This document shows, piece after piece, positions 18,650 to 41,489 of a DNA stretch of 48,507 nt. Positions within the stretch are counted from its first letter, which is position 1. Each line of letters starts with the position of its first letter. Position numbers and translations under genes: made by a program. This stretch comes from a virus: IMG/VR virus record IMGVR_UViG_3300046507_000159, positions 1 to 48,507 of that record. One strand, 5' to 3'. The notes beneath the pieces were generated by a model. The model saw only the letters and a list, made by a program, of their open reading frames with translations, was not told the DNA's origin and searched no databases.

Positions 18650-18702
18650 TCGGTACTCCTCACCTTTAGTTAGAGTTATCCGCTTGTGCTGCGGGGTATG
18701 CC

Positions 18703-18861: not shown

Positions 18862-18871
18862 TTGTGGTCTC

Positions 18872-22690: not shown

Positions 22691-22708
22691 ATGGCTAGGT
22701 ACTCCTAA

Positions 22709-22876: not shown

Positions 22877-22878
22877 GT

Positions 22879-23530: not shown

Positions 23531-23548
23531 GTTTAGCTGTAGTCCTAA

Positions 23549-25929: not shown

Positions 25930-25933
25930 GGCA

Positions 25934-26770: not shown

Positions 26771-26785
26771 GTGCTGTAGTCCTAA

Positions 26786-29242
26786 TTAATGGATGGTTTG
26801 TTGCGAAAGGAAAGACGGCGTGTAGCCGTTCATATACAGGGTGCGTAACTCGGTTCGGAACTTATCGGCGCATGCCTCAAACTCTCCAGTGAAATTGTTT
26901 TCTTGCATCATTGAATCTCCGTGCACGGTAACGCTCGGCACGGGAACGGGAACGGTCCAACCGAAATACCACTCCATGAAATCGGACGCGGCCAACATGC
27001 AGGCATGCAGGAGCGCGCTAGACTCAAAGAGCACGGACTTATGGGCGTCCTTATAGAGCGCGTCGTGGACTTGATTAACCAGCAACGCGAGACCGCCAAA
27101 GTTCTTACGCTTATAGAACGCGCGGATTGCGAGCCACATAGCGGCCTTGGCCCACTCCCCGCCCGTACCCTGGACCTCGTAGTTAGCAATTTCCGTAGGG
27201 CTAAAGCTCTGCGGCATGGAACCACGTTGGATAGCCCACTTAGGGGCGGGAGACTCGCGGTACGAGTACACCTTGTTATCCGGCGTAACGCTCCAACCTT
27301 TCCCGAGTTGGCACATGAGGCCCGGTACGTCCGGGTGCGGTTGAATGTTCTGCGTAGGGCGGCGGGAAAGCTCGATACGCTTAGTCTTAGCTGCGTTGTA
27401 CGCTGCAAGCTCGGGGTACCGTTCGTTTTCCGCCTTAATCAACGCCTCTACGTCCTCCTGCGCCATGCCGGTAGATTCCGCAATCTTTGCGGCCCCCGCG
27501 CCGTACGCACGCTGGAAAGAGAACTCCTTAGCGCCCTGCCGTTTCTTGGGCCAACCCTCACGCGGCGCAATACCTTTGTCCTTATCACCCTTACACCACA
27601 GGAGGGCCTCCTCGTACGTAACGCCCTCTTTCTGCGACACCCGGACAACGTGCATGTCTAGGCCCGCTTGCAAGTCCGCGATAAGTTGCTTACAGCCGGA
27701 TAGGATTGCTTGGACGTATACCTCAAGCGAGGTAAAGTCCGATTGCACAATCTGCCCGTCCGCGCCGAACCGCGAGATAAACACGAGCTTTACTTGACTA
27801 CCGGACTTGAGCTTACCGTCCTCGTCCAACTCGCCCTTAGGGACGTTCTGGAGGTTCGGGTTATTTGACGAGAACCGCGCCGTAACCGTGGACGTGTGGT
27901 TAATTGAGTGGTGGATAATCGAATCGATGCCCACAAGGGTAAGCATCCCCTTGTACTCACCCGTCTTTTCGTCAAGCGTTATGTAGTAAGTCCCGAGGTC
28001 CTTTGTGAGTTTCGCTACCTCTGCGAGCGTCTTAAGAAAAGGGATATTTCGGTTACCCAATGCCTCGATAACCTCACCCGCCACGGAGTACAACCCCTCG
28101 GTACTACTCGCCCACTCGGGCTTAGGGTCCGTGTGGCCCGGGAACTCGTAGAAGAAATCCCGCATTGCGGACTTAGGCCCGCGCGAGAGGTCCGGGACCT
28201 TAACCTTTTTGGTCTTGAGTTCTCCCGCGTTCTTGCCCGAACCATACCGGAGCGGCTCGGGTTGGTGATCCATGCGCCGCCAGTCCTCCAGCGGCATTGT
28301 TTTATGCTCTACCTTGCCGTCCGCGTTGGTCGTTTTCTCGTGCTTGAGATACACAACCTCCGCGTCTTTCTGGTAGTAGACGGGGTTTCCATCCTCGTCC
28401 GTAGTCGTTACGCGCTGCTCGTACTTAACCTTACCGCCGAAAATCAGCGGGGAGAGGTGGTACCGGTTGGACCAATTGAAGTCAAACGGGAGCGCATCGG
28501 GGAGGTAACCGCGTAGCTCGGTCGTAATCTGCTCTAGGCGTACTTGCAACTCGCCCGCGAGCTTGAGGCCAAGCTCCTTATTAACGAACATGCCGTTACG
28601 TTCCATTTCCACCGAACACAGGAGCGAACCCATGTTAAGCAGAATGGATTTTGTCTGCCCCGTCTTGCGGGCCTTGGCTAGTTGGCCCTGGAAAATAAGT
28701 CGGGTGTTACCAATATCCCCATGTGCACGGGACGCCTTAGGCACGTCCTCCCGTTCCATAGTGCCTATCAGGTAATCCATAAGCAGTTGCTTATCGATAT
28801 CCGGCGTGTCTACCCCGGCCTCCCACAACGCCTTAACCTCGTCAATCTTTACGTTACCGCCGTAGGACACAACCATTTCGTCCATAGCCAACATTTGCGA
28901 GCTTGGCTCCATACCGCGCAAGAGGTACTCGGCTAACTGTACGTCCCACACGTTCCCGCCGTTAGCTACAAACTCCTGCCACGCCTCAAGGTTCTGCGGC
29001 TCGCGGAGCGCGTGTAGCAAGTCGAATTTAATATTCTGACCAACGAGGAGCGTAGTTCCTTTGAGGAGCTTGGTGAACCAATCGAACGGTTTAGCACCCC
29101 GTCCAAAGTACTCACCTACCGGGGCCTCCGTGGAGCGCGCCCACCCCGAGGCAACCACGAAGTTATCCGGCCAGAAAGGAGACCCTTTCCGCTTCATATA
29201 GGCTTTGGTCGTGGTCTCCACGTCCCATGTAACGTACGTCAT
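26786..29242 (-). CDS. family A DNA polymerase with 3'-5' exonuclease
   Basis: 818 residues. The exonuclease domain (about 1-200) has 'TWDVETT' and 'GQNIKFDLLHAL'. The polymerase domain (about 390-800) has motif A 'IVQSDFTSLEVYV' with Asp502, motif B 'RQGAKEFSFQRAYG', and motif C 'VNQVHDALYKDA' with Asp727. Motif C reads HDA where most family A enzymes have HDE. An insertion at about 275-385 is rich in Lys/Glu and may be the thumb or partner-binding loop. It is the replicative enzyme, T7 gp5-like. The GTA-to-ATG region overlaps the nucleotidyltransferase stop by one base. Confidence 0.95.
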   Translation of the reverse strand: MTYVTWDVETTTKAYMKRKGSPFWPDNFVVASGWARSTEAPVGEYFGRGAKPFDWFTKLLKGTTLLVGQNIKFDLLHALREPQNLEAWQEFVANGGNVWDVQLAEYLLRGMEPSSQMLAMDEMVVSYGGNVKIDEVKALWEAGVDTPDIDKQLLMDYLIGTMEREDVPKASRAHGDIGNTRLIFQGQLAKARKTGQTKSILLNMGSLLCSVEMERNGMFVNKELGLKLAGELQVRLEQITTELRGYLPDALPFDFNWSNRYHLSPLIFGGKVKYEQRVTTTDEDGNPVYYQKDAEVVYLKHEKTTNADGKVEHKTMPLEDWRRMDHQPEPLRYGSGKNAGELKTKKVKVPDLSRGPKSAMRDFFYEFPGHTDPKPEWASSTEGLYSVAGEVIEALGNRNIPFLKTLAEVAKLTKDLGTYYITLDEKTGEYKGMLTLVGIDSIIHHSINHTSTVTARFSSNNPNLQNVPKGELDEDGKLKSGSQVKLVFISRFGADGQIVQSDFTSLEVYVQAILSGCKQLIADLQAGLDMHVVRVSQKEGVTYEEALLWCKGDKDKGIAPREGWPKKRQGAKEFSFQRAYGAGAAKIAESTGMAQEDVEALIKAENERYPELAAYNAAKTKRIELSRRPTQNIQPHPDVPGLMCQLGKGWSVTPDNKVYSYRESPAPKWAIQRGSMPQSFSPTEIANYEVQGTGGEWAKAAMWLAIRAFYKRKNFGGLALLVNQVHDALYKDAHKSVLFESSALLHACMLAASDFMEWYFGWTVPVPVPSVTVHGDSMMQENNFTGEFEACADKFRTELRTLYMNGYTPSFLSQQTIH

Positions 29243-29820
29243 TACAAACTCCCGAATTCAAACGAGAACGTTGGATATTTGTCCCGTAGGCGTTTCTCGC
29301 GCTCTGCGCTAATGTTCCCCCGCGTGCGGACGCAACTATCCAGGGCCGTACGTTTGAATTCCGCCGTGCCGTAGACCTCCTCCCCGTCCGTCCAGCACCG
29401 GCTAATGCTGTCCGGGAACTCGTTAATACGGCCCCACACGTCAAACACGTACAAGAGGTTGATTGACTTATCCAAGGTCTCGTACGCGAGCAACATAGAC
29501 CCGCTGTGCGGTGCATACAGGGCGAGCATTTCCGGGTCAATGCACGGGCGCAGTGTTTGGCCGATAGCCTCCGTGAGGTCGTGGGCGTCCTGGCCGTTCT
29601 GCGAGATAAAGTCCAAGTCCTTTACCGGGCGGCCAAAGTACGTGTCACGCACGGCCCCGCCTGTGAGATAGACGCCCGGGCAGACTGCGCGCACGCGACG
29701 CATTAGGCCGCCGTACGTTTCGAGAACTAGGTTGCGGCCCGGGTCGTCCGTGGCTAGCGCGTATTCCGGGTCCGAGAGTGGGTCTAGGTGTTTGAGCACG
29801 AGATTGGATAGGTTAAACAT
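29242..29820 (-). CDS. nucleotidyltransferase (pol beta / poly(A) polymerase head domain)
   Basis: 192 residues. 'GVYLTGGAVRDTYFGRPVKD' followed by L-D-F-I-S is the GG-x9-DxD signature of nucleotidyltransferases of the tRNA CCA / poly(A) polymerase class. Only the head domain is present; the tRNA-binding body is missing. The target could be tRNA, mRNA 3' ends, a host protein or a small molecule. Preceded by TTAGGAGTAC with 11-nt spacing. Placed between DNA polymerase and the DatZ-like gene. Confidence 0.8.
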   Translation of the reverse strand: MFNLSNLVLKHLDPLSDPEYALATDDPGRNLVLETYGGLMRRVRAVCPGVYLTGGAVRDTYFGRPVKDLDFISQNGQDAHDLTEAIGQTLRPCIDPEMLALYAPHSGSMLLAYETLDKSINLLYVFDVWGRINEFPDSISRCWTDGEEVYGTAEFKRTALDSCVRTRGNISAEREKRLRDKYPTFSFEFGSL

Positions 29821-29838
29821 GTGTGGCAGTACTCCTAA

Positions 29839-30387
29839 TCAGTAAGTGAGTTCCTTGTACCGGCCAAGGAACATAAGGCGCGCAATGTCGGGATTAACTC
29901 CTCGCACACGCTCAGTAACAGTCTTGATACCCCGGAAGTCCGACCACGCTACGCGGTCCACTCCGTCAACCTCGGGGCGCGGCTTAGGCATCAAGTCCCG
30001 CCGCTCCGTAACCAACATGCGGAGGTCTGCCTCTTTAATCGCGGGGTCCAGTGGGTACGCCACGCCGAACCTATCGCAGATAGCGCGCTCTACCCTCTCC
30101 TCAATCCGCTTGTAATCCGGGAGGAGTCGCTTAAGCGGGCTAGACACGTCCCCAAGGTACGCCTCGGAGGCGTCATGCAGGAGGGCGGCTAATGCGAGGT
30201 GGTCCGGGACGAGAAACGAGACGTACACGCTATGCTGTGCAACGCTGTAGAACTCGGTCGTATGCCCGGTAAAACGACAGATACGGCTAAGGGACGTTGC
30301 TATGTCCTCAATGTCGATTGAGTCCGGGGATGCCTCGGTAAAATCAAAGTACCGGCCTGTGCTCGTGAGAATTTGTGGAGGGATCAT
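29839..30387 (-). CDS. HD-domain deoxynucleotide phosphohydrolase (DatZ/YfbR-like)
   Basis: 182 residues with GGAGGAG upstream. 'DIATSLSRICRFTGHTTEFY' then 'SVAQHSVYVSFLV' and 'LLHDASEAYLGD' (His71-Asp72) and 'EADLRML' (Asp121) form the HD metal site. The family includes E. coli YfbR (dNMP 5'-nucleotidase) and DatZ of phage S-2L, which strips dATP so that 2-aminoadenine is used instead. Substrate here is unproven. Together with the MazZ-type gene at 23 kb it forms two-thirds of the known Z-DNA pool-shaping set. Confidence 0.82.
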   Translation of the reverse strand: MIPPQILTSTGRYFDFTEASPDSIDIEDIATSLSRICRFTGHTTEFYSVAQHSVYVSFLVPDHLALAALLHDASEAYLGDVSSPLKRLLPDYKRIEERVERAICDRFGVAYPLDPAIKEADLRMLVTERRDLMPKPRPEVDGVDRVAWSDFRGIKTVTERVRGVNPDIARLMFLGRYKELTY

Positions 30388-30518
30388 TGCTTGCTCCTCC
30401 AGTTGGAGTACGCGGCATACGGGCTAACATAGCTATACCCGAGCGGAAGTGCGGAGTTTAGGTACGGTTTGAAGTGACACCACCACACGCCCACTTGCAT
30501 ATAAATGTGCGGTTTCAT
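30384..30518 (-). CDS. small hypothetical protein, 44 aa
   Basis: The ATG overlaps the ligase stop (AATGA) and its own stop overlaps the HD gene start (CAATGA). It carries several Tyr and Trp residues ('MKPHIYMQVGVWWCHFKPYL'). Perfect coupling on both sides and coverage of an otherwise empty gap support it. Function unknown. Confidence 0.55.
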   Translation of the reverse strand: MKPHIYMQVGVWWCHFKPYLNSALPLGYSYVSPYAAYSNWRSKQ

Positions 30519-31435
30519 TTGCTCATATCCTCCGGGGCGCGGAACGATTTATAAACAGGATGCCGTGGGGCGTCTACCGTGCCGTGGTCGAAAAACTTAA
30601 AGGTAACGTAACGCCCCAAAAGCGAGGCTTGCATCTCCCAAAACTCGCTACGTTGCTGCGCGGTAAATCCAGTGCCAATATTGAACCGCACTCCTCCCCG
30701 TTCAACCACAAGTGCGCCAAGGGAACCCTTACCGACCAAACCCGCTTGCGCCGTACTACGCTCTGTTCTGCCTGTCGCGTTGCGTGTCGCCTCATTTTCA
30801 TTTCGCATCTCCTCCTCAAACCCAACTACCACCGCCTCGGCGTCTACGAACCGCTTAACCTTGACGAGTCCGCCCTCGCGCTCGGTGGACCGTCCGTATT
30901 TGTATTCGGCGTCCCCGCTACGGATCATTAAGCCCTCGTAGCCCTCGGCCAGGAACTGCGCCTCTAGCGTATTGAGGTCGTCCATATGCATACAGGAATG
31001 CTGTGGGACCATCCGAATATCAATCTCGGGGTAGCGCGCGTAGAACGGGGAGACACGGCCTTCAACTATTACCGTGCGCTCGTCGTAGATAAACTCCGAA
31101 ACGCTAGGGTCTACGTAATCGAACACATGGAAAGTGAAGTCTGGTTCACCTTTCTTCGCCATAACCGCCATGCTGTTTTGCATACAGTTAGCGTCCGTGG
31201 GTGAACCTACCGTAAGCTCCCCGTCCAAACCCTCCAGCAAGCCCGAGAACGCACTTGCAAACTCTTGGACAAGCGGGTTAGGAATAGGCTTGAGGCTCCG
31301 CGAGTACGCTACGCCGTCAAACACGACGCAGCGGATACCGTCAATCTTCGGGCTGGCCCACACAGGGAACTTGATAAGCTCGGGCTTAGTGAGCGTTGCG
31401 GCTAGGTTCGGCTTAAAGCCCTCGGGGATAGTCAT
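30515..31435 (-). CDS. ATP-dependent DNA ligase (T7-like)
   Basis: 306 residues, a minimal ligase. Nucleotidyltransferase motifs are visible: I 'SPKIDGIR' (Lys30 adenylated), III 'GLDGELTVG', IIIa 'FHVFDYV', IV 'GYEGLMIR', V 'GGLVKVKRF'. A C-terminal OB domain follows, with an Asn/Thr/Arg-rich insert at about 215-235. It seals nicks on the lagging strand and possibly cohesive ends after entry. Coupled upstream to a 51-residue ORF. Confidence 0.94.
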   Translation of the reverse strand: MTIPEGFKPNLAATLTKPELIKFPVWASPKIDGIRCVVFDGVAYSRSLKPIPNPLVQEFASAFSGLLEGLDGELTVGSPTDANCMQNSMAVMAKKGEPDFTFHVFDYVDPSVSEFIYDERTVIVEGRVSPFYARYPEIDIRMVPQHSCMHMDDLNTLEAQFLAEGYEGLMIRSGDAEYKYGRSTEREGGLVKVKRFVDAEAVVVGFEEEMRNENEATRNATGRTERSTAQAGLVGKGSLGALVVERGGVRFNIGTGFTAQQRSEFWEMQASLLGRYVTFKFFDHGTVDAPRHPVYKSFRAPEDMSK

Positions 31436-31587
31436 TGCTGCACCTCAATGGACACGTCCCGAATATCCCCCCAAACGTCCAAGGACTCCCGCAAGCTATC
31501 CTCGAATACTTCCGCATCCGCGTCGGACCACTTCTCGCACGCGTCGTCTACGTCAACCACAAAAGTAACTTTGATTTTCTCGCTCAC
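31432..31587 (-). CDS. small hypothetical protein, 51 aa
   Basis: GTG start at 31587 in a GTGA overlap with the preceding 31-residue ORF, with CTGGAGGA upstream. It ends CAATGA over the ligase start. Acidic, with pattern 'EKIKVTFVVDVDDACEKWSD', an alpha/beta mini-domain. Coupling on both sides argues for real translation. No family recognised. Confidence 0.58.
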   Translation of the reverse strand: MSEKIKVTFVVDVDDACEKWSDADAEVFEDSLRESLDVWGDIRDVSIEVQQ

Positions 31588-31679
31588 AGTACGTCCTCCA
31601 GGTAATCAAGACACGCCTCGTAGAAGTCGGCGTAAGCGTTAAAGAGATTGCGGAACAGGACTAAGGTGTGCTCGCTCAT
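31584..31679 (-). CDS. very small hypothetical protein, 31 aa
   Basis: ATG 31679 overlaps the stop of the 87-residue gene (GCATGA). The frame encodes an acidic, aromatic helix ('FRNLFNAYADFYEACLDYLE') and ends over the next GTG start. It may serve mainly to couple translation. Confidence 0.45.
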   Translation of the reverse strand: MSEHTLVLFRNLFNAYADFYEACLDYLEDVL

Positions 31680-31939
31680 GCAACCTCCGCCTCAATGGCG
31701 GCGCACGTTGCCGCGTCTAGGTACAGCACGTCACCCGCATTAACTACTTGCTGCAACACGCGCGGGGATTCCATAAGCTCGTCCACCGCCACAACGGGAC
31801 CAACCGAGCACACGTCCAGGCCCCACGCGCCCCGGTCATTCAGGACGCGCACCAACGTCCCTTTAAGGAAGTAATGGATAGGACGAACCCCGCCCGCGTA
31901 CGTGGTTTTATCGCTCGTAACAATCGCGTACTGTTTCAT
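31676..31939 (-). CDS. hypothetical protein, 87 aa
   Basis: ATG 31939 preceded by TTAGGAGTAC with 11-nt spacing. Beta-rich, with 'YFLKGTLVRVLNDRGAWGLD', suggesting a small SH3-like barrel, and an Ala/Glu C-terminal helix. Lies between helicase and ligase. Function unknown. Confidence 0.65.
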   Translation of the reverse strand: MKQYAIVTSDKTTYAGGVRPIHYFLKGTLVRVLNDRGAWGLDVCSVGPVVAVDELMESPRVLQQVVNAGDVLYLDAATCAAIEAEVA

Positions 31940-31953
31940 GTTCCGCTGTACTC

Positions 31954-33249
31954 CTAAGCGTTTTCAGTTGGCATTAGCAAGCGGGACCGCTCACCATCGA
32001 ATAGAACTTCTGCGTTCGGACTCTTGGGTTGCCCTGCCCTTGCGAGCTTGTTCTTAGTCAACCCAATCCACCGCACGCCGTCATACATAGACTCATTCTT
32101 GGACCCGAGCGTAATAATCGCGTCCGCTGCGCCCTGCTTACCCGTCTTAGAATCCTTGAGCATAGAGAGCGTAGGAAACGGCAAACCGTCCCCGTCTGCG
32201 CTAATCTGCGAGGTAGCGATAACAGGCGTGTCGTACTTAACGCCCATGAGGCGGCCCCACTGATAGGCGGCCTCTAGGATTTGGTCCGTGCGCTGTCCGC
32301 CGTTAAGCGTTTGGCCCCCGAACTTGACGTTATCCAACATATCGAACACAACAAGGCCCGGAGGACAGCGGCGCATAATGTCCTCTAGCTCGTAGGACCA
32401 AAAATCGTGCACGTCCATAACGCGGATACGGTCCAGGCCGCCCATTTTGATGGCGTACTCCTCTTTCAAGGTACCGCCCGAGGACTTACGGATAAGCTCG
32501 GCAACCGTTGCGTTTAGCGCGGCCTGATACATACGCTGGACGATACGGCGGCCCGGTCCCTCGTTGTTAAACCACAGCACGCACCGCCCGTGCTCGGGGC
32601 CGTAATACTCGTTGAACTGCGCGGCCATGTGCGTAACGATTTGAGCTACGCCCGTGGTCTTTCCTTTGTCGGGGCGGCCTGCGTAGATAACGAAGTCCCC
32701 CGGGCGGAGGCCTCGCATGGTGAGGTCCAGACATTGGATAGGCCAATGCAATCCCCTATCGTCCTTGTCGTCCGCGAGAATGTCCTCAATGTCCGCGTCT
32801 ACCCAAGGGAGCCTACCTTTCTTAGCCGTGGCCGCCTCGTACCGGCTCATTTCGTCGCGCAGGGACACGTAGAGATCAATCTCCGCGCCCTCGTTGTACT
32901 GCGTGATTAAGTCCGTAATACGGTGCGCGCTCTCCGCTGCGAGCAACCGCTCCATAATCCCGGCCTCTAACGCTGCATCGCAGTCTTTATCCAAGACCTC
33001 CGCGAGCATTACCCGGTAAAGGGCTCGTTGCTCCTCGGTTAAAGTCGGGTGCGCAAAGGTTGTGAAATACAGGTTGAACGGCTCGAACTCGATACGCTCA
33101 ACGTCCGGGAACTCCTTAAAGAACTTACCGAAGTCGTCCAGGATGAAAACGGACTTAGGCTCAAGGGCCGCTTTGGGGACCGCCTTAGCGAGGCGCTCGT
33201 ATCGCTCGCGGTACCGCAGGAGTTGGAGTAACGTAACTTCTAAGCTCAT
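31954..33249 (-). CDS. replicative DNA helicase (DnaB/RecA-fold)
   Basis: 431 residues from ATG 33249 with GGAAAG upstream; the in-frame ATG at 33261 lies inside the HNH gene end. The N-terminal helical domain (about 1-170) precedes a RecA-type motor: Walker A 'IYAGRPDKGKTTG' (about 200-212), Walker B 'GLVVFDMLDN', then 'VIATSQIS' and 'IGLTKNKLARAG', the pattern of DnaB-like helicases. Unlike T7 gp4, primase and helicase are separate genes. It unwinds the fork with the primase encoded 1 kb upstream. Confidence 0.9.
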   Translation of the reverse strand: MSLEVTLLQLLRYRERYERLAKAVPKAALEPKSVFILDDFGKFFKEFPDVERIEFEPFNLYFTTFAHPTLTEEQRALYRVMLAEVLDKDCDAALEAGIMERLLAAESAHRITDLITQYNEGAEIDLYVSLRDEMSRYEAATAKKGRLPWVDADIEDILADDKDDRGLHWPIQCLDLTMRGLRPGDFVIYAGRPDKGKTTGVAQIVTHMAAQFNEYYGPEHGRCVLWFNNEGPGRRIVQRMYQAALNATVAELIRKSSGGTLKEEYAIKMGGLDRIRVMDVHDFWSYELEDIMRRCPPGLVVFDMLDNVKFGGQTLNGGQRTDQILEAAYQWGRLMGVKYDTPVIATSQISADGDGLPFPTLSMLKDSKTGKQGAADAIITLGSKNESMYDGVRWIGLTKNKLARAGQPKSPNAEVLFDGERSRLLMPTENA

Positions 33250-33731
33250 ATGTCTTTCCATACCTTGCGGTTACAGATCATGGACACGGCGGATATCGTT
33301 ACGCCGTAGCGCTCCGCCAACTCGCGCAGTTTTGCGCCGCTCTGTCGTAGCTCGCGCATTTCAATAACCTGCGGCTCTAGCACCTTTGCGTAGCCGTTAC
33401 GCTCGCCCCTTGCGCACCGTCTACGGGCTACGCGGTCGGCGGTGTTGTCTTGCGTCGTACCAAGCTCAAGGTGCAGGGGATTTACACACGCGGGGTTGTC
33501 GCACTTATGGCGGACCATGAGGTTATTGGGTATAGGGCCGTATGCAAGCTCGTAGGACAGGCGGTGCGCAAGGAACGCGATACCTTTAACTTTGAATTGG
33601 CCATACCCTGCGGAGGACTTGCCTAGCGGTGTCTCGATGCATCCGGACCTTTTGGGCGGGGCCGTGTCTGTACATGGGTGATCGAACGCGACATTAACCC
33701 GGCCGCATTTTCGGCAATCGTACATACTCAT
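33246..33731 (-). CDS. HNH endonuclease with C-terminal helix-turn-helix (homing type)
   Basis: 161 residues. The N-terminal zinc-like 'CRKCGRVNVAFDHPC' precedes the His-Me finger core 'VRHKCDNPACVNPLHLELGT', followed by 'NTADRVARRRCARGERNGYA'. The C-terminal 35 residues ('AERYGVTISAVSMICNRKVW') are a helix-turn-helix of the type that targets homing endonucleases. It sits between primase-side genes and helicase, overlapping both by 4 nt. Probably a free-standing homing endonuclease. Confidence 0.87.
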   Translation of the reverse strand: MSMYDCRKCGRVNVAFDHPCTDTAPPKRSGCIETPLGKSSAGYGQFKVKGIAFLAHRLSYELAYGPIPNNLMVRHKCDNPACVNPLHLELGTTQDNTADRVARRRCARGERNGYAKVLEPQVIEMRELRQSGAKLRELAERYGVTISAVSMICNRKVWKDI

Positions 33732-33934
33732 TTCGGGACCCTCATATAGAGCGGCGTACCGTTGATTGCGCCCGCCTCGCGGTACTCGTATTGCATCTCG
33801 GTCAGTGCGGCTAGCAACTCGCTAACGGTAACGGGCGGGTGTACGCCGTCGCCTAACCACCGTTCCGGGGACCTATCGCCCCGCCGTCCTTGCATCGCCT
33901 TGAGGCGGCCTATGAGGTCCTTGCACGCACTCAT
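33728..33934 (-). CDS. hypothetical protein, 68 aa
   Basis: Overlaps its neighbours by 4 nt on each side. Helical with basic N-terminus ('KDLIGRLKAMQGRRGDRSPE') and 'VTVSELLAALTEMQYEY'. No family recognised. Confidence 0.6.
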   Translation of the reverse strand: MSACKDLIGRLKAMQGRRGDRSPERWLGDGVHPPVTVSELLAALTEMQYEYREAGAINGTPLYMRVPK

Positions 33935-34266
33935 TGCGCGGCCTTAAATGTGAAGTCCTCAACTCGCCCGTCCGCATAGTGCAATTTCGCACGCTGCCGG
34001 AACCAACCGGCCTCCTCCACGTAGATTGACTTGCCGTATATCGTTGGAACGTCGTACCCGTCCGAGTCGTCAACCCAAAAGGACCAACGGTCCCCGCAGC
34101 ACTCGCAGGAGTCGGAGTTATCGCAGAACGTCTCCGCCTTGGCGATAGCCTTCTCTGCGTTCTCGGCCTCGATAAACACCTCCTCACATACGTTCTCGTC
34201 CTCTACGAATGATCCGCCGCTATTGTTTTGACCAAAGCGGAACCACTTTAAGTTTTGAGTAGACAT
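33931..34266 (-). CDS. hypothetical protein with Cys cluster, 111 aa
   Basis: Acidic protein with 'CDNSDSCECCGDRWSFWVDD' in the centre, a possible metal-binding loop, within an alpha/beta fold ('ENVCEEVFIEAENAEKAIAK'). Overlaps the primase 3' end by 19 nt and the next gene by 4 nt. Similar Cys-rich small proteins occur near primases in other phages. Role unknown. Confidence 0.65.
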   Translation of the reverse strand: MSTQNLKWFRFGQNNSGGSFVEDENVCEEVFIEAENAEKAIAKAETFCDNSDSCECCGDRWSFWVDDSDGYDVPTIYGKSIYVEEAGWFRQRAKLHYADGRVEDFTFKAAQ

Positions 34267-35051
34267 TGGATAGCCTCCCGGCTTAGTAATTTGGGGTCCT
34301 TTTCGGACACGATGTTGGTAACCTCCCGGCCGTACGCCCGGAGCGTCTTGTTAATCTTTGTTGCGTTGTTCTGTCCCGCTGCATCCGGGTCTAACCATGT
34401 GTAGACGGGCTTACGCGTCTTGATAATCTCGGCGGCGGTCCAATCGTTTAGCTTGGTTCCGAGCAGAGACCACGCAGCGAACCCCGCGCGGGATACGCGA
34501 TACGCGCTAAGGAGGTCCTCGGTTAGAACCAGCGCGGGACCGTCCCCGTACTTGGCTATAAGACGGCGTTTGTCTACTGCGGGGTTGGTGTACTTGCGCG
34601 GGTTGCCCTTATCGAGCGTGCGCGCCTGCCAGTAAATGACCTTCCCTAGCTCGTCCCGAACGGGGAGCACCACCCGGCAAAGGTGAGGATTCCAATAGAT
34701 TCCGAGGGTCTCTATTTCAGCGTTCGATATTCCCGCCTTGTAAAGCCACACGCGGGCCGTAAGCGGCCACGTACGCGGGTCTCTCTCGGCGGGTAGGGGT
34801 AAGCTAGGGGAGGCGGCTACGGCGTCCTCGGCGGCCCGTATACGTGCGATACGGGCGAGTTTCTCCGTGAGTGTCTCGGCGGGTTTAGGGTGGTAGGACT
34901 TATAGCCGCAACGATGGCAGTAAGCCGTATATCCGTCCCGCTTATGATTCAACTGGAGACAATCGCCCGGTCCACAGTCATGCGGGACCTTTCGAGTAAC
35001 TCCCTCCGGTAGCCGCTCGGCGTGCTGTACCCAATCTTTCGAATCCAACAC
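34248..35051 (-). CDS. DNA primase (zinc ribbon + Toprim)
   Basis: 267 residues, GTG start with GGAGG upstream. The N-terminal zinc ribbon has Cys pairs in 'HDCGPGDC' and 'YCHRCGYK'. The Toprim domain has the catalytic Glu in 'ALVLTEDLLSAY' and D-x-D in 'TWLDPDAAGQNN', then 'SEKDPKLL'. Equivalent to the primase half of T7 gp4 but encoded alone. The gene precedes helicase by 1 kb with small genes and an HNH element in between. Confidence 0.9.
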   Translation of the reverse strand: MLDSKDWVQHAERLPEGVTRKVPHDCGPGDCLQLNHKRDGYTAYCHRCGYKSYHPKPAETLTEKLARIARIRAAEDAVAASPSLPLPAERDPRTWPLTARVWLYKAGISNAEIETLGIYWNPHLCRVVLPVRDELGKVIYWQARTLDKGNPRKYTNPAVDKRRLIAKYGDGPALVLTEDLLSAYRVSRAGFAAWSLLGTKLNDWTAAEIIKTRKPVYTWLDPDAAGQNNATKINKTLRAYGREVTNIVSEKDPKLLSREAIQCLLKT

Positions 35052-35063
35052 GCGAGCCTCCGA

Positions 35064-35231
35064 TTAGTGCACTTTAGTTTCCGACAAACAGACCACGTTG
35101 TAGAACGGGTAAAAGCGGCGCGTACCGTCCCGCGTAAACCACACGCCCACGTCAGTGAAAGACGTATCCCAATCGTGACCGTACGTGTACATACCGCCGT
35201 TGGTCAGCGTGATATGCCAACTCCTGCGCAT
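35064..35231 (-). CDS. small hypothetical protein, 55 aa
   Basis: ATG 35231 with CTGGAGGTCTGAGC upstream. Open for 55 codons ('MRRSWHITLTNGGMYTYGHD' at the start), stopping before the primase ribosome binding site. Beta-rich with many aromatics. Fills a 180-nt gap in the unit. Confidence 0.6.
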   Translation of the reverse strand: MRRSWHITLTNGGMYTYGHDWDTSFTDVGVWFTRDGTRRFYPFYNVVCLSETKVH

Positions 35232-35233
35232 GC

Positions 35234-35494
35234 TCAGACCTCCAGGCTAACGCCGTGCTTTGCTGCCTCTTCCGCCGCCTTACGTGCTACGTCCCCTGCA
35301 TTGATTGACGCGGCGTACGCGCGGTCCTGCATACGGTCTACGGCACGGTGTGCGGCCTGCGCCTCCTCGTCCGCCTTATTGACGAGCGCGGTAAGGGCGT
35401 TGATATGCAGGGACAACAGATACGCCCGGACATTCGCGCCGAACTGTGCGAGGCCGTTAATGATTGCGAGTGCGGTACGCGTGATTTTGTGCAT
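35234..35494 (-). CDS. hypothetical helical protein, 86 aa
   Basis: Ala-rich, with a hydrophobic N-terminal third ('LAIINGLAQFGANVRAYLLS') that could be a weak membrane or amphipathic helix, then a coiled coil with 'ALVNKADEEAQAAHRAVDRM'. AGGAG is upstream. No family recognised. Confidence 0.6.
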   Translation of the reverse strand: MHKITRTALAIINGLAQFGANVRAYLLSLHINALTALVNKADEEAQAAHRAVDRMQDRAYAASINAGDVARKAAEEAAKHGVSLEV

Positions 35495-35509
35495 GAGTAG
35501 CTCCTAGAG

Positions 35510-35788
35510 TTAGGCGGTAATGTCGCGGAAATAGAAAGCCGTGTCGGCGGGCATATCGGACGGGCGGTAAGCGTTGTTTATGTCGGATTGCTGATTAACT
35601 CCAGACGCGGCGAACGCTTCGCGTACCTCGTCGATAAGCCCCCGGCGTGACCGCGCCGGGTGACCGCCAACCTGCGAGATAACGTACATTACTACCTGTG
35701 CCTCCTCAAGGGTGAGCGTGAGAATTACCGCCGCCTCTTGCTCCACCACTTCCCGCACCTTGCGTTCTTGCTTGATTGCCTTAGCCAT
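35510..35788 (-). CDS. hypothetical protein, 92 aa
   Basis: An N-terminal basic/acidic helix, then 'LEEAQVVMYVISQVGGHP', a helical bundle also seen in small phage proteins of unknown role, and a C-terminal 'MPADTAFYFRDITA'. ATG 35788 follows AAGGGTG. No function assigned. Confidence 0.6.
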   Translation of the reverse strand: MAKAIKQERKVREVVEQEAAVILTLTLEEAQVVMYVISQVGGHPARSRRGLIDEVREAFAASGVNQQSDINNAYRPSDMPADTAFYFRDITA

Positions 35789-35797
35789 GTGTCACCC

Positions 35798-36214
35798 TTA
35801 AATGAGATTTGCGAGCGGGTCCGCCGCTGCGCTCTGCGGTGCGGTCTCTGCGCCGTACACCGCTGCAAAGCTCGCGGGTTGCGTCGTGTTGCGCTCCGCC
35901 TCGGCCTCCTGCACGTCCTTGAACTCCGCGATAACGTCCTGCGGTTTGATGCGGACAACCTGCACGTCCACGCCCTCGCCTTTCATAACGAGGATTACGC
36001 GGCCTTTGTCCGTGTCCACCACGTCCACCACCACGCCCGCAAACTTTCCGCGAGTCTCGCCCCGGCCAAACTCGTAAAACACAGGGCTACCCTTGACGAG
36101 GTTAGAGAGCGTCTCCTGTGCTGCGAGCGCTTGCTCTAGTTGCTTAATCTTTGCGTCCGCCTTTTCACGGATCGCGAGTTGGGCGGTCAGTTGTTCTTTG
36201 ATGGTCTTACTCAT
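35798..36214 (-). CDS. hypothetical early protein with SSB-like C-terminal tail, 138 aa
   Basis: Start chosen at ATG 36214, preceded by TTAGGAGTAC at 11 nt. A coiled coil at about residues 1-40 is followed by a beta barrel-like domain ('GKFAGVVVDVVDTDKGRVIL', 'KGEGVDVQVVRIKPQDVIAE'). A flexible Ala/Thr region ends A-D-P-L-A-N-L-I, matching the last residues of the putative ssDNA-binding protein. This suggests docking to the same partner or a second ssDNA/RNA-binding role. Not otherwise recognised. Confidence 0.65.
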   Translation of the reverse strand: MSKTIKEQLTAQLAIREKADAKIKQLEQALAAQETLSNLVKGSPVFYEFGRGETRGKFAGVVVDVVDTDKGRVILVMKGEGVDVQVVRIKPQDVIAEFKDVQEAEAERNTTQPASFAAVYGAETAPQSAAADPLANLI

Positions 36215-36308
36215 GTTCGGAGGTACTCCTAAGTTTACGGGCAAGTTGGATAGACAAAAGGACAGGGGTTACGAGGAACAGAAATGCGCTACCTAGCGCT
36301 ATCGACAC
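36207..36308 (-). CDS. possible 33-aa membrane peptide
   Basis: A GTG frame (36308) overlapping the lipoprotein 3' end by 10 nt encodes one hydrophobic helix ('LGSAFLFLVTPVLLSIQLAR') and ends over the next start codon. No clear ribosome binding site, so expression would depend on coupling. It covers an otherwise empty gap. Confidence 0.4.
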   Translation of the reverse strand: MSIALGSAFLFLVTPVLLSIQLARKLRSTSEHE

Positions 36309-36520
36309 GAGATAGCTACCGGAGAATTGTTGTACGGACCGTGAGTTGCCACGTAGCACACGGACCCGTCATCGGTAAAGCGTCGCACGGTTACACCGGA
36401 GGGAGTCGTGCCTACGTACTCCCCGAGCGGCGGCTCGTCCGCTGCGGCCCTCTGCGTGCAACCTTGGATAACTCCGCCCACCGCCGCGAGCATTGCGAAT
36501 ACGAGGAGAGCCTTTCTCAT
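36299..36520 (-). CDS. early lipoprotein, 73 aa
   Basis: The signal peptide 'MRKALLVFAMLAAVGGVIQG' is followed by Cys21 (V-I-Q-G-C lipobox). The mature part is short with one further cysteine pair and 'YVGTTPSGVTVRRF'. Encoded in the early unit and not in the lysis cassette, so superinfection exclusion is a reasonable guess. No family recognised. ATGA overlap with the preceding gene. Confidence 0.68.
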   Translation of the reverse strand: MRKALLVFAMLAAVGGVIQGCTQRAAADEPPLGEYVGTTPSGVTVRRFTDDGSVCYVATHGPYNNSPVAISCR

Positions 36521-36909
36521 GCGGCCACCACCGTACGCGTCTCTTTGACCAAGTACGCGGCGGAGACAACCTGCGGGAGAAATTCGTAGCGGACGCCCAC
36601 CACGCCCACGGACTCCACGTACGCACGGGCCTCGGTCTCGTTATCGAACCGAATAACTCCGCCTTGCTTGCCGTCCTGGTAGACGGGGCGTACGTGGACC
36701 TCGGTTTGTTCCTCAACACGTACGTAGCTCTGTGAGGCGCGGAGGTGGTGCGGGTAGCGCTTGAGGTACTCCTCAAACGCGACGTACTGTTTTCCGTCAA
36801 CAACCGCAACCCTTGCAACTGTAACCACCTCTCTCAGTAGAGGGCCTTTCCACGTCCCCACGTCGCTAACATTGCGCACCTTTTGACCCAAAACAAATTG
36901 CTTGCTCAT
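36517..36909 (-). CDS. hypothetical protein, 130 aa
   Basis: Starts 'MSKQFVLGQKVRNVSD', with beta segments resembling an SH3-like domain ('GQKVRNVSDVGTWKGPLL') followed by alpha/beta ('RFDNETEARAYVESVGVVG'). Layout resembles the 255-residue protein encoded upstream. Function unknown. Confidence 0.63.
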   Translation of the reverse strand: MSKQFVLGQKVRNVSDVGTWKGPLLREVVTVARVAVVDGKQYVAFEEYLKRYPHHLRASQSYVRVEEQTEVHVRPVYQDGKQGGVIRFDNETEARAYVESVGVVGVRYEFLPQVVSAAYLVKETRTVVAA

Positions 36910-36923
36910 GTTCGTATCCAGTA

Positions 36924-37010
36924 TTAATAGAGTTTCGGGAGCGGCTTGAGGCCGAGGGCGTACGCTGCGAATTCTGCGGGCGTCATGCCCTTAATCTGCA
37001 CGTTTTCCAT
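36924..37010 (-). CDS. very small hypothetical protein, 28 aa
   Basis: ATG 37010 with AGAGGCAGG upstream. Short frame 'MENVQIKGMTPAEFAAYALG' plus eight residues. The ribosome binding site and the fit to the gap are the only support. Confidence 0.42.
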   Translation of the reverse strand: MENVQIKGMTPAEFAAYALGLKPLPKLY

Positions 37011-37019
37011 GCCTGCCTC

Positions 37020-37787
37020 TTAACAGGTTTCAAGCGTTGTCGTACGGGTAACGCGGCGGCGTGCTACCACCTGCGTAATCGTGTATTCCTTGCCGTTGTC
37101 CCCGAGGGCGCTAAGGAATGCCTCGGCGGCCTCAAGCGTGGGGTACTCGGTCGTCATGCCTGCAATGAGGAACGGGCCTGCGGCGGGTTGTTCGGCTTGC
37201 ACAGGCTCCAAGGCCGCGAACTCGTAATTCCACTCGCCCCCGTCTACCACAACGGCGCACCCGTACGTGCCTACCGACACCACGCGGCCAACTTTGCCGA
37301 TGTTCGGCGTCATGTACTCGTCGGACCACCAAATGTGCTCCTCGGACTTGCGCGCGATAAGCACGAAATCTCCCTCGTTGAACTTAGCGCGTGCCGGGAC
37401 AATCTCGTATTCGTGAGCGTACAGGCAGTGGTCGTCCTGCGCGTCATCCAGCACGATTACCGAGCCTGTGTCCTCGTAGACTTCCTTGACCGTGTACACC
37501 GCGCCCTTACGGAGGTCACACTCGTCCACCAATGCGCGGACCTTGGAACCCACGCCGAGCACGAGCACGCGCTCCGGCGCAAGCTCATAACGATCCTCGC
37601 CCCACCCGTACACCTCATAGCCCGAGTCCATACGCACTCGCGGAACATAACCGCTGCTCGTAACGGTCCCCGTCTTGCCAACCTCCGCGAAGTCGCCCGG
37701 GAACGAAGTCACCGCCTCGGTGCTACCGTCTCCGTCCATGCCGTGGAACACAACGCGCGCGCCGTCGATAAATTTAAATTCGTTCAT
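37020..37787 (-). CDS. hypothetical protein with repeated SH3/KOW-like segments, 255 aa
   Basis: ATG 37787 with TTAGGAGTAC at 11 nt. Three similar beta units can be seen: 'FAEVGKTGTVTSSGYVPRVR', 'GSKVRALVDECDLRKGAVYT' and 'PNIGKVGRVVSVGTYGCAVV', each followed by acidic turns. Such KOW-like repeats occur in proteins that bind RNA, ribosomes or RNA polymerase. Early position makes a host-transcription role possible (inference). The C-terminal 50 residues are a separate alpha/beta unit. Confidence 0.68.
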   Translation of the reverse strand: MNEFKFIDGARVVFHGMDGDGSTEAVTSFPGDFAEVGKTGTVTSSGYVPRVRMDSGYEVYGWGEDRYELAPERVLVLGVGSKVRALVDECDLRKGAVYTVKEVYEDTGSVIVLDDAQDDHCLYAHEYEIVPARAKFNEGDFVLIARKSEEHIWWSDEYMTPNIGKVGRVVSVGTYGCAVVVDGGEWNYEFAALEPVQAEQPAAGPFLIAGMTTEYPTLEAAEAFLSALGDNGKEYTITQVVARRRVTRTTTLETC

Positions 37788-37822
37788 CTGTATGTGTACT
37801 CCTAAGTATTTGCGGGTGAGAT

Positions 37823-38026
37823 TTAGCGGGAACGAGCTTGCGGGAACAGACGCGGATTCAGCGGGCCGCCCGGGTTGCGCTGGCTGAGGTTAAAGAACTC
37901 CTTAGCCTCGCGGCGGTGCGTGTGGACTACTTGCTTGGCCTCCGGGTGGGCGTTCAGGAATTGGCCTACCGTGTGCTTGCGGTCGATGTCGAATTTGCGT
38001 TCTTGGGTGTTGGTCGTGGTTTGCAT
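37823..38026 (-). CDS. hypothetical protein, 67 aa
   Basis: Basic, His-rich: 'DRKHTVGQFLNAHPEAKQVV' then 'HTHRREAKEFFNLSQRNPGG'. Length and charge fit a nucleic-acid-binding or inhibitor peptide. No family recognised. Confidence 0.58.
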   Translation of the reverse strand: MQTTTNTQERKFDIDRKHTVGQFLNAHPEAKQVVHTHRREAKEFFNLSQRNPGGPLNPRLFPQARSR

Positions 38027-38035
38027 GGTGTGGTC

Positions 38036-38350
38036 TCAGTGAAAGGTGGTTACTTCATGGAATGCAATGCGGCGGAGAATGCGCGATTTACTACGCTCGA
38101 AAACAGATTGATACGTGCCGTGGCGGTACTCGCCCGATACCTCAACCTCACTAATGCGGAATCCCTGATCGTGGGCCTCGGCGTGGAATTCTGGTGAGGC
38201 GAACCACTCCAACAATTGCTCAATGCTTGCAAAGCCAAAGTAGAAATCCCTGCGCTCGCTGCGCCATTCCAACGGTTCCCACCAAGCCCGCAATTCGGGG
38301 TCTCTGCACGGCCCGGGCGTGTCGTCAGTTTCGAGTCTGTAGATAATCAT
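38036..38350 (-). CDS. hypothetical protein, 104 aa
   Basis: Alpha/beta with 'GFASIEQLLEWFASPEFHAE' and 'QGFRISEVEVSGEYRHGTYQ'. This W-F-x-S-x-E-x pattern is common in small phage proteins of unknown function. ATG 38350. Confidence 0.62.
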   Translation of the reverse strand: MIIYRLETDDTPGPCRDPELRAWWEPLEWRSERRDFYFGFASIEQLLEWFASPEFHAEAHDQGFRISEVEVSGEYRHGTYQSVFERSKSRILRRIAFHEVTTFH

Positions 38351-38401
38351 GGTTTACTAGTCCGCTTGGTGTCGGTACTGTTATGTATTCCTGATTGATT
38401 G

Positions 38402-38635
38402 TCAGTGCAGGATTGCAAGGGTGGAGCCTTTCGGGAGCACTCGCTCAACCTCTCGGGCCGCGTACTCGGTCTCGCCCGCGCAGTGGATAACGTGGGCTAC
38501 GATGCATTGGCCGCCGTCTGTAATGGTCGGGTGCAAACGCGGGACCTCAAACCCGTAGTGATTGAGGATTACTTGGACGGCACGGAAAGCGTTACGGCTA
38601 GCGTCCGGGGTGTTGATTACGAGCGTATGGGACAT
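38402..38635 (-). CDS. hypothetical protein, 77 aa
   Basis: Alpha/beta protein, 'MSHTLVINTPDASRNAFRAV' at the start and 'YAAREVERVLPKGSTLAI' at the end. No motif recognised. The ATG lies 12 nt after the stop of the 53-aa gene. Confidence 0.58.
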   Translation of the reverse strand: MSHTLVINTPDASRNAFRAVQVILNHYGFEVPRLHPTITDGGQCIVAHVIHCAGETEYAAREVERVLPKGSTLAILH

Positions 38636-38647
38636 GGCGTTACAGTG

Positions 38648-38809
38648 TTACCAGTGCTTTAGGGAGGTTGCTACCGTTGCGCCTACGAGTGCGCCCGTGT
38701 TGCCGTAATGCTTAACCGGAGGCGGTGCGCCTCGGTACACCGTAATGCGATGGCCGTTAATCACCTTGACCGTCCCGCGAGCTTGCGGGGTTTTGTGCTT
38801 GGGTTTCAT
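38648..38809 (-). CDS. small basic protein, 53 aa
   Basis: ATG 38809 lies two bases after the stop of the first early gene. Open for 53 codons: 'MKPKHKTPQARGTVKVINGH' then 'RITVYRGAPPP' and a Gly/Ala end. Very basic, suited to nucleic-acid or RNA polymerase binding. Second gene of the early unit. Confidence 0.62.
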   Translation of the reverse strand: MKPKHKTPQARGTVKVINGHRITVYRGAPPPVKHYGNTGALVGATVATSLKHW

Positions 38810-38811
38810 TG

Positions 38812-39105
38812 CTAGTAGTACTCCCGCAATAGTTGCTCACGAGTGAGCGGTTGGGTTTGTGGTGCCGTAGAAATGACGTACCCGCCCGTGTTGACCTTGA
38901 GCGGTTTGTTAGACGTGAGGCCCCGGCGTGAGGCGTCCCGGGAAATGTCGCGTACTGCGTTGCCGTACGAGCGCTTGCGTTCCTCTCGTTCGGCCTTTTG
39001 GCGTGCGTGTGCCTGCCGCTCTACGCGGCTAGCTGCGGCGGTTGCCGATTGCTTGGCTTTGGAGAAATACAGGGCGCGCTTTTGGGCCTGAGTGAGTGCT
39101 TGCAT
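38812..39105 (-). CDS. first gene of the main early unit, 97 aa
   Basis: ATG 39105 behind TTAGGAGT. Highly basic coiled coil ('RVERQAHARQKAEREERKRS'), followed by a flexible C-terminus ending 'LTREQLLREYY'. The first gene after a strong host promoter in Xp10-like and T7-like phages often modifies or inhibits host RNA polymerase. No similarity to Xp10 p7 is evident by eye. Function unknown. Confidence 0.68.
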   Translation of the reverse strand: MQALTQAQKRALYFSKAKQSATAAASRVERQAHARQKAEREERKRSYGNAVRDISRDASRRGLTSNKPLKVNTGGYVISTAPQTQPLTREQLLREYY

Positions 39106-39470: not shown

Positions 39471-39505
39471 GTATGAACTTTAGACGGGTACACTGTTAGT
39501 GTCAA
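39470..39505 (-). promoter_or_regulatory. sigma70 promoter P1-left (TTGACA-N17-TAAAGT) of the main early unit
   Basis: Reading leftward: TTGACA (39505-39500), 17-nt spacer, TAAAGT (39482-39477), start near 39470. Upstream GAAAATCTTTTGC resembles an UP element. It shares the -35, the -10, CGGGTACAC in the spacer (plus-strand 39485-39493) and the first transcribed bases with the 19.3-kb promoter. It should fire at infection without phage proteins. Confidence 0.86.
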
Positions 39506-40039: not shown

Positions 40040-40069
40040 TTGACATAGAGCTAACCCTACGGGTACCCT
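40040..40069 (+). promoter_or_regulatory. candidate promoter for the recombinase-like gene
   Basis: TTGACA (40040-40045), 18-nt spacer, TACCCT (40064-40069). The -35 is consensus and the -10 weak. It overlaps CGGGTACCC (40060-40068), related to the spacer word of the two leftward early promoters. An alternative -10, TATAAA at about 40085-40090, would give a nearly leaderless message. Either way no Shine-Dalgarno precedes the ATG at 40103. Confidence 0.5.
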
Positions 40070-40102: not shown

Positions 40103-40993
40103 ATGCCTAACGTTATTACCAAGTACGCCAAGGACGGACGAGTTAGCTACCAAGCAGTTGTCCGTGTGGACAAGGCCCGCCCCATTAAGAGGACCTTTCC
40201 TACCCTGGAGGAGGCCGAGGCGTGGCGTGTCACAAAGGACCAAGAATTAAGAGCGCTGCGCGATACGCCCGCTCACGAGTTTTCGCTTGCGGAGGTCATA
40301 GAGGACTACACAACGCTCCACCCCTCCACTGTCCCTCCGGAGCTTGTACAACACTTGTCTAGTGCTATGTCGCTCCCGTTGGCCGCTGTGGGTGAGACCT
40401 ACGTACGAGAATTAGGCGAGGAGGACCTTGATACAGTGCAGGAGATAATCGAGCACGCCCGTAGGTATATGGGTGTGATGGTCCCGGAAAATATCGTGGT
40501 TGCTCTCCGTGCCAAAAGAAAAGGCCTCCCTTATCGGCCCCTCACTGCTTGGGAGGAGTCATGCTTGTTAGCAGGTTCAAAAGGCCTCGCTAATGATTGT
40601 CTACAGGACGTGTTAATCCTCGCTTTAGACACAGCATTAGTCCAACAGGAAATACTGGACCTCCAACATAATCAAGTATGTTTAGAGGAGAGTGTTATCC
40701 GCATGAGTCCCGCACGCATTATTCCTTTGACCACCCGCGCAAAGACGGTATTAACTAGACGCCTCGCAGATAATCACGGCCTCGTATTTTCTAATCTCCC
40801 TAAGAACACCGTCCAAACTGCCTTCATTCGCCTAAAAAATAAGCTCGGCTATAACGGGCCGGATTTTAACGACATTCGAAAGATTGCAATAACGCGCCTT
40901 GCAGAGAAAATGTCCATACACGAACTCAAGGACCTCCTCGGATACCAACGATATACCGCGCTTGAGTGGCTCATTGCCCTCCAGAAAGATTGA
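40103..40993 (+). CDS. tyrosine recombinase-like protein lacking catalytic residues; candidate regulator
   Basis: 296 residues with integrase layout: arm-type domain (1-55, 'YQAVVRVDKARPIKRTFPTL'), core-binding region (60-135) and catalytic-fold domain (150-296). Aligned by eye to active enzymes, the first Arg is Val180 (TALVQQE for TGxRxxE), the hairpin Lys is absent, the first His is Asn256 (FNDIRK), the second His is Tyr281 (LLGYQ), and the Tyr nucleophile position is Trp289/Leu290. Only Arg259 remains. It cannot cut DNA by the known mechanism but may still bind it. The gene is oriented away from the early promoter, lacks a Shine-Dalgarno, and sits where a repressor would be expected. The real integrase is at 15.8-17.1 kb. 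Confidence 0.82.
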   Translation: MPNVITKYAKDGRVSYQAVVRVDKARPIKRTFPTLEEAEAWRVTKDQELRALRDTPAHEFSLAEVIEDYTTLHPSTVPPELVQHLSSAMSLPLAAVGETYVRELGEEDLDTVQEIIEHARRYMGVMVPENIVVALRAKRKGLPYRPLTAWEESCLLAGSKGLANDCLQDVLILALDTALVQQEILDLQHNQVCLEESVIRMSPARIIPLTTRAKTVLTRRLADNHGLVFSNLPKNTVQTAFIRLKNKLGYNGPDFNDIRKIAITRLAEKMSIHELKDLLGYQRYTALEWLIALQKD

Positions 40994-41160: not shown

Positions 41161-41195
41161 CCTATATTAAACCTAGTAATTATATGGAGTTCCCA

Positions 41196-41489
41196 ATGGT
41201 TACTAAGGTATTCCATACCCGCTTACGGGGTAATGCTGGAGTACAGCAACGTAAGAGAATTAGGATTAGGGATAAGTACATTTGTCAGCATTGCAATATA
41301 GCTGTCCGTGTAGGAGAAGTAGACCATATTATCCCATTAGAGTTAGGTGGTACGAATAATGATAATAATCTACACCTGCTCTGCTCTCCTTGCCATATAA
41401 AGAAAACAGCTAAGGATAGAGGATATAAAGTAACCACAGGTTCTAACCTAGATGGTACTCCTACTAATCCAGAACATCATTGGAACTAA
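41196..41489 (+). CDS. HNH endonuclease next to the terminase genes
   Basis: 97 residues from ATG 41196, which has GGAG 6 nt upstream; an in-frame ATG at 41184 overlaps that site. The zinc Cys pair C-Q-H-C precedes 'VDHIIPLELGGTNNDNNLHL' and L-C-S-P-C-H, a complete HNH domain. HNH proteins beside HK97-type terminases stimulate cohesive-end cleavage during packaging, a likely role here. Codon use is visibly AT-rich (many TTA, ATA, AGA) compared with the rest of the genome, suggesting recent acquisition. Confidence 0.88.
   Translation: MVTKVFHTRLRGNAGVQQRKRIRIRDKYICQHCNIAVRVGEVDHIIPLELGGTNNDNNLHLLCSPCHIKKTAKDRGYKVTTGSNLDGTPTNPEHHWN

What the first reader, a model, noticed from the sequence alone, without database searches (positions are those of the whole stretch)
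40103..40993. A catalytically dead tyrosine recombinase in the repressor position
Seen: an integrase-like protein in which the first catalytic Arg is Val180, the hairpin Lys is absent, His is Asn256, the second His is Tyr281, and the Tyr nucleophile is Trp289/Leu290. Only Arg259 is kept. The same genome has a separate intact integrase. Known: tyrosine recombinases need these residues to cut and join DNA. Inference: the fold has been repurposed as a sequence-specific DNA-binding regulator, perhaps the immunity repressor or an early/late switch. It faces away from the early promoter, lacks a Shine-Dalgarno (as lambda cI does from PRM), and no classic CI-like repressor is visible elsewhere in the genome.
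Basis: partly seen in the sequence, partly recalled or inferred. Interest (0 to 1): 0.85.

Follow-up and report, generated by a model that had tools for sequence, protein, structure and literature searches.

The report
Dead recombinase serving as phage repressor
This phage gene descends from a DNA-cutting integrase but has lost its cutting residues, and it sits exactly where close relatives carry an ordinary LexA/CI-type repressor, so it very probably keeps the phage dormant by blocking its early promoter.

Summary
ORF 40103-40993 is a tyrosine-recombinase-fold protein whose active site is gone (R to V180, hairpin Lys deleted, H to N256, H to Y281, Tyr to L290; R259 kept). The close relatives found share the lost residues, and the genes are under purifying selection. 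The genome is a complete circular assembly with a separate, catalytically complete integrase. The regulator reading is strongly supported by comparison. (1) Of 27 related phages, 16 carry a dead recombinase and no S24 peptidase; the other 11 carry an S24 (LexA/CI-type) repressor and no dead recombinase. In the three S24 genomes inspected it lies in the same slot and orientation. (2) The lifestyle cassette swaps between integrase and ParA/Rep, while the dead recombinase stays. (3) A heptamer RTGTACC sits at a fixed place in the -35/-10 spacer of the early leftward promoter and a second promoter, only in phages with this protein subtype. (4) The N-terminal DNA-binding domain is its most conserved part, the reverse of the intact integrases. 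Best reading: immunity repressor, shutting the early operon that ends in the phage RNA polymerase. Not unprecedented: MrpR of SPbeta is a dead tyrosine recombinase repressor, but not detectably related by sequence. DNA binding and immunity are untested.

The parts
40103..40993 (+). Dead tyrosine-recombinase-fold protein, the proposed immunity repressor: N-terminal arm-type DNA-binding domain (aa 1-54), shortened core-binding-like domain (about 58-141), degenerate catalytic domain (147-296)
40040..40069 (+). Promoter of the dead recombinase gene: TTGACA (40040-40045), 18 bp, TACCCT (40064-40069), overlapping the palindrome GGGTACCC (40061-40068). TTGAC[AG] is conserved upstream of the gene in the genomes compared; autoregulation is possible but weakly supported
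39477..39505 (-). Early leftward promoter: TTGACA (39505-39500), 17 bp, TAAAGT (39482-39477)
39487..39493 (-). Candidate operator GTGTACC in the spacer of the early promoter
19312..19340 (-). Second leftward promoter with the same architecture (TTGACA, GTGTACC at +12, TAAAGT), next to the endolysin, reading into a cassette of small ORFs
19322..19328 (-). Candidate operator GTGTACC in the second promoter
19060..19275 (-). First small ORF (71 aa) behind the second operator promoter, function unknown
20408..39105 (-). Leftward early block (primase, helicase, ligase, DNA polymerase, nucleases) with single-subunit RNA polymerase as its last gene; the proposed target of repression
20408..22690 (-). 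Single-subunit (T7-type) RNA polymerase, last gene of the early block
15732..17147 (+). Separate integrase with the full R-K-H-R-H-Y set; replaced by ParA plus small protein plus HTH_36 protein in G001, G005 and G007
41184..41489 (+). HNH endonuclease, downstream flank of the repressor slot in every genome mapped

Best explanation
The protein is the immunity (lysogeny) repressor of this phage. An integrase-type tyrosine recombinase lost its catalytic residues and kept its DNA-binding domains. It most likely binds an RTGTACC operator lying between the -35 and -10 boxes of the host-type early leftward promoter (39505-39477) and of a second leftward promoter (19340-19312), and blocks RNA polymerase there. 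With the early operon off, the phage RNA polymerase at its end is not made, and late genes that depend on it should stay silent. Shown by computation: fold, loss of catalysis, conservation, purifying selection, conserved locus, exchange with S24 repressors at that locus, and the operator-like element with its fixed position. Inferred: that this protein binds the element, that binding represses, that it confers immunity, and that late genes depend on the phage polymerase.
For: (a) Displacement: 21 further phages with related RNA polymerases (48-59% aa) were examined; the six read in full are colinear with the window. Over 27 genomes, 16 have a dead recombinase and no Peptidase_S24, and 11 have S24 and no dead recombinase. 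In G013, G021 and G030 the S24 repressor sits between the first early gene and the HNH gene, in the same orientation. (b) Core gene whichever lifestyle cassette is present: integrase in the window, G002, G004, G006, G010; ParA cassette in G001, G005, G007. (c) Operator: of 112 TTGACA in seven genomes, 14 have [AGT]TG[TC]AC[CT] at exactly +12 and no other offset has more than 2; matrices trained without the target clade still find the sites; a 30-bp composite pattern hit only contigs carrying this protein in 2.9 million viral contigs; absent from three S24 genomes (0 of 174) and three genomes with diverged dead recombinases (0 of 119). (d) Constraint: N-terminal domain 79% identical, catalytic 60%, core-binding 42%, against 36-40% N-terminal and about 63% catalytic for the intact integrase of the window compared with G002 and G004. 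(e) Purifying selection, pN/pS 0.07-0.43. (f) Experimental precedent for the mode of action: MrpR.
Against: No binding, repression or immunity data exist for this protein. The dead-recombinase and S24 genomes form clades, so the mutual exclusion reflects few independent replacements. The operator is tied to the lineage, not strictly to this protein. Autoregulation is weak: an operator-like site in the gene's own promoter is significant in few genomes. In ParA-type genomes the operator promoter reads toward parA, which a lysogen needs; parA may have its own promoter. No inducing signal is apparent: unlike S24 repressors it has no self-cleavage domain.
Confidence: 0.8

Rival explanations
1. A regulator, but not the immunity repressor: an activator or an early/late switch acting at these promoters.
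For: DNA-binding domains are conserved and the element lies in promoters. Some operator promoters read toward parA.
Against: The early promoter has a perfect -35, a 17-bp spacer and a 4/6 -10, so it should need no activator; an element between the boxes fits blocking. The slot is held by S24 repressors in sister phages.
Confidence: 0.1
2. The element is bound by some other lineage protein; the dead recombinase has another role, such as DNA architecture or replication control.
For: The operator pattern co-occurs with the whole lineage, so association alone cannot name the binder.
Against: No HTH or other DNA-binding family was found among the unassigned ORFs scanned, and S24 is absent. The element vanishes in sister genomes that have S24 or a diverged dead recombinase while most other genes remain.
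Confidence: 0.08
3. An accessory or antagonist of the intact integrase (decoy, directionality factor, arm-site competitor).
For: It has a lambda-Int-like arm-binding domain and an intact integrase is present in this genome.
Against: It is equally conserved in G001, G005 and G007, where no homologue of the integrase was detected and ParA holds its place. It has no detectable sequence similarity to the resident integrase.
Confidence: 0.03
4. A decaying pseudogene or an ordinary integrase with misread residues.
For: Catalytic residues are missing.
Against: Open frames in all relatives, pN/pS 0.07-0.43, the same losses in the close relatives and related losses in sister clades.
Confidence: 0.01

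Closest known systems
MrpR (YopR), master repressor of Bacillus phage SPbeta (PDB 8A0A; PMC10516654, PMC8612738)
   Same: Tyrosine-recombinase fold without recombinase function that acts as prophage master repressor at a repeated element in phage promoters. Parallel losses: Arg I to V137, His to N254; second Arg kept (R258). A separate integrase does the integration.
   Different: MrpR as described has only core-binding and catalytic domains, no N-terminal arm-type domain, and keeps K169 and Y304, both lost here. No sequence relationship was detected (hhalign E 0.24), and structurally it ranks behind lambda Int and P2/HP1 Int. Its regulatory setting (arbitrium, MazEF) has no counterpart seen here. 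Independent recruitment is the simplest reading.
Phage integrases with an arm-binding domain (Paku, Turba, lambda, P2, HP1)
   Same: Same domain order and fold; profile match to Paku Int E 1.8e-15; Foldseek ranks lambda Int best.
   Different: Catalytic residues lost, hairpin deleted, core-binding domain shortened, constraint shifted to the N-terminal domain.
LexA/CI-type S24 phage repressors
   Same: Same genomic slot and orientation in the sister phages inspected, and presumably the same role.
   Different: Unrelated fold; no S24 self-cleavage domain, so induction must work differently.
Integrase/parABS exchange in cluster A mycobacteriophages (abstracts PMC12714336, PMC7157519)
   Same: Related temperate phages carry either an integrase or a partition cassette and keep a repressor.
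   Different: Different phages; the proposed repressor here is a dead tyrosine recombinase.

Membership tests
Tyrosine recombinase fold superfamily | Arm/core-binding/catalytic domain fold | tested here: met
   PHROG_1 4e-14; AlphaFold2 pLDDT 85 and Foldseek to lambda Int, P2 and HP1 Int
Active tyrosine recombinase | Catalytic R-K-H-R-H/W-Y | tested here: not met
   Only the second Arg is kept; conserved loss in the family
MrpR-type (dead recombinase repressors): homologous family | Detectable sequence homology to MrpR | tested here: not met
   hhalign E 0.24; only the fold is shared (rank 37)
MrpR-type: functional kind | Recombinase fold, catalysis lost, separate integrase present | tested here: met
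MrpR-type: functional kind | Binds a repeated operator in phage promoters | tested here: inconclusive
   Repeated RTGTACC element found at fixed promoter position; binding not testable here
MrpR-type: functional kind | Required for lysogeny / confers immunity | not testable with these tools
   Only indirect: slot shared with S24 repressors and mutual exclusion
CI/LexA-type repressor | HTH plus S24 peptidase domain | tested here: not met
   No S24 in the window genome; no HTH or S24 hit on the protein

The most novel reading that the evidence does not exclude
A second, independent invention of a recombinase-derived phage repressor: an arm-binding integrase lost catalysis step by step (Arg I and His II lost everywhere; Lys, His III and Tyr lost only in some branches) and holds the slot that LexA/CI-type repressors hold in sister phages, with the former attachment-site-reading N-terminal domain now reading an operator inside promoters, and with operator changes between subclades giving new immunity specificities.
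Probability: 0.5. Interest if true: 0.82.

Novelty: new variant of a known kind. Interest (0 to 1): 0.7.

Why it matters
MrpR is the one characterised dead-recombinase phage repressor found in the literature searched, and its authors guessed that such recruitment is more widespread. This lineage offers an apparently independent case with a candidate operator, a series of partly decayed homologues, and natural controls in which the same slot holds a LexA/CI-type repressor. It also warns annotators that a second integrase in a temperate phage may be its repressor, and that such phages would be called repressor-less by standard pipelines.

Tried and rejected
Nucleotide search of the locus in 50,697 phage records: no match. 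Reference-genome scans found no prophage copy; two pattern hits were returned, and the one inspected (L060) is a chance match in an unrelated chemotaxis-type gene cluster. The first version of the operator pattern had one N too many and hit nothing, corrected. PDB search by sequence gave only chance hits. Searching for phage RNA polymerase promoters by repeated words found nothing convincing. An alignment of the leader RNA that included a wrongly chosen segment was dropped for the matched segments. The script stopped with an error before G006, so its own-promoter test covers six genomes. Rejected readings: integrase helper (ParA-type genomes lack the integrase), pseudogene (purifying selection), lambda-like leaderless start (a leader exists).

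Full report
Observation. The ORF at 40103-40993 (+) encodes 296 aa with a significant match to PHROG_1 integrase. Alignment with intact integrases from Burkholderia phage Paku and Pseudomonas phage Turba places every catalytic position: Arg I is V180, the beta-hairpin carrying the Lys is deleted, His II is N256, Arg II R259 is kept, His III is Y281 and the nucleophile is L290. AlphaFold2 on the nine-member family alignment gives pLDDT 85. Foldseek finds lambda Int first and P2/HP1 Int catalytic domains at about 3 A; the global TM-score is only about 0.4, presumably because domains are placed differently. The predicted first 54 residues are three strands and a helix, the layout of the lambda Int arm-binding domain (fold comparison from general knowledge).

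The losses are a family trait. Scans of IMG/VR found relatives at 52-81% identity and one more through a peptide pattern; all lack the same residues. Substitution ratios pN/pS of 0.07-0.43 show purifying selection. Constraint is inverted relative to the intact integrases: N-terminal 79%, core-binding-like 42%, catalytic 60% in the dead proteins, against 36-40% N-terminal and 63% catalytic for the window integrase compared with those of G002 and G004.

Genome context. The window is a complete circular assembly (127-bp end overlap). The genes from 39105 down to 20408 that match families or are conserved read leftward and end in a T7-type RNA polymerase; structural genes read rightward. The dead recombinase reads rightward from the gap between the blocks, followed by an HNH gene and terminase. 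Six relatives of 46-48 kb share this order. The integrase at 15732-17147, catalytically complete, is present in G002, G004, G006 and G010 but replaced by a ParA-like ATPase, a small protein and an HTH_36 protein in G001, G005 and G007. The dead recombinase is present in all, so it is not an integrase helper.

Displacement test. Searching with an alignment of the RNA polymerase found further phages of the group. Distant dead-recombinase homologues appear in eight of them, at the same locus in the three read in full (G019, G022, G026). All have lost Arg I (to E, M or S), and all with that region sequenced have lost His II (to N or G), while some keep the Lys and/or Tyr. The other branch has no such protein. 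In G013, G021 and G030 the slot between the first early gene and the HNH gene holds, in the same orientation, a protein with a Peptidase_S24 domain. The tally over 27 genomes is 16 dead recombinase without S24 and 11 S24 without dead recombinase (the weak recombinase hits in G013, G016, G017 and G021 are to integrase frames at the contig starts). These are clades, so the number of independent exchanges is small, but a core locus that holds either a LexA/CI-type repressor or this protein is the strongest evidence for its role. In a small tree the dead proteins are separated from the two intact ones with 99/99 support; with only two intact rows this is a hint of one origin, not proof.

Operator. 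The early leftward promoter in the window is TTGACA-CTAACA-GTGTACC-CGTC-TAAAGT (39505-39477). The same layout is found at the early promoter of every genome in the close group and at a second leftward promoter next to the endolysin, with a weaker site in G004. Of 112 TTGACA in seven genomes, 14 have the heptamer at +12, two at +11, and no other offset has more than two. Matrices trained without the target clade recover the sites well above shuffled sequence for most targets. L051, unknown when the matrix sites were collected, has a site of score 28.8 at its early promoter. A 30-bp composite pattern searched in 2.9 million viral contigs hits five stretches, all in contigs carrying this protein. 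In three S24-slot genomes the heptamer occurs at +11 to +13 in none of 174 TTGAC[AG], and in three genomes with diverged dead recombinases in none of 119, although the latter keep a TTGACA-N17-TACATT/TACAGT early promoter with a different spacer. This is what different immunity specificities would look like, but binding has not been shown. The gene's own promoter has a conserved -35 and, in G005 and G006, the same element in the spacer; elsewhere a site is weak or absent, so autoregulation is open.

Mechanism. The early promoter is close to consensus and should need no activator. A protein bound between -35 and -10 would block it, silencing replication genes and the phage polymerase. Repression, immunity and the dependence of late genes on that polymerase are inferred.

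Known systems. Literature searching found MrpR of SPbeta: a crystal structure with recombinase fold, no recombination activity, binding to the repeated element SPBRE in phage promoters, required for lysogeny. The kind is therefore known. This case differs in carrying an arm-type domain, in having lost Lys and Tyr too, in having no detectable sequence relation to MrpR while matching Paku Int strongly, and in sharing its locus with S24 repressors. It is a new variant of a known kind.

Noticed in passing
window 39273-39339, minus strand: Conserved RNA hairpin in the leader between the early promoter and the first early gene: 6 of 15 predicted pairs show compensatory changes among only four sequences; no Rfam match. 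Possibly an antitermination or regulatory element.
   Followed up: partly
window 15732-17147 and the corresponding slots of G001, G005, G007: Lifestyle cassette exchange: integrase in some genomes, ParA-like ATPase plus small protein plus HTH_36 (possible Rep) protein in others, suggesting integrated versus plasmid prophages in one syntenic group.
   Followed up: partly
window 20408-22690: A T7-type RNA polymerase at the end of the early block of a phage with HK97-type terminase and lambda-type tail; a mosaic of T7-like and lambdoid modules.
   Followed up: partly
G019, G022, G026 (L166-L171, L175-L177): Sister dead recombinases keep different subsets of Lys, His and Tyr, and their early promoters carry different spacer sequences: a possible series of immunity specificities.
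   Followed up: partly
window 17136-19275, minus strand: Second operator-controlled cassette: small ORFs followed by a lipoprotein-like protein (PHROG_8011) and a secreted-looking protein of unknown function.
   Followed up: no
window 39659-39680 (+) and 39735-39742 (-): Further TGTACC-containing elements in the divergent region, the first partly conserved in G001, G007 and L002.
   Followed up: no
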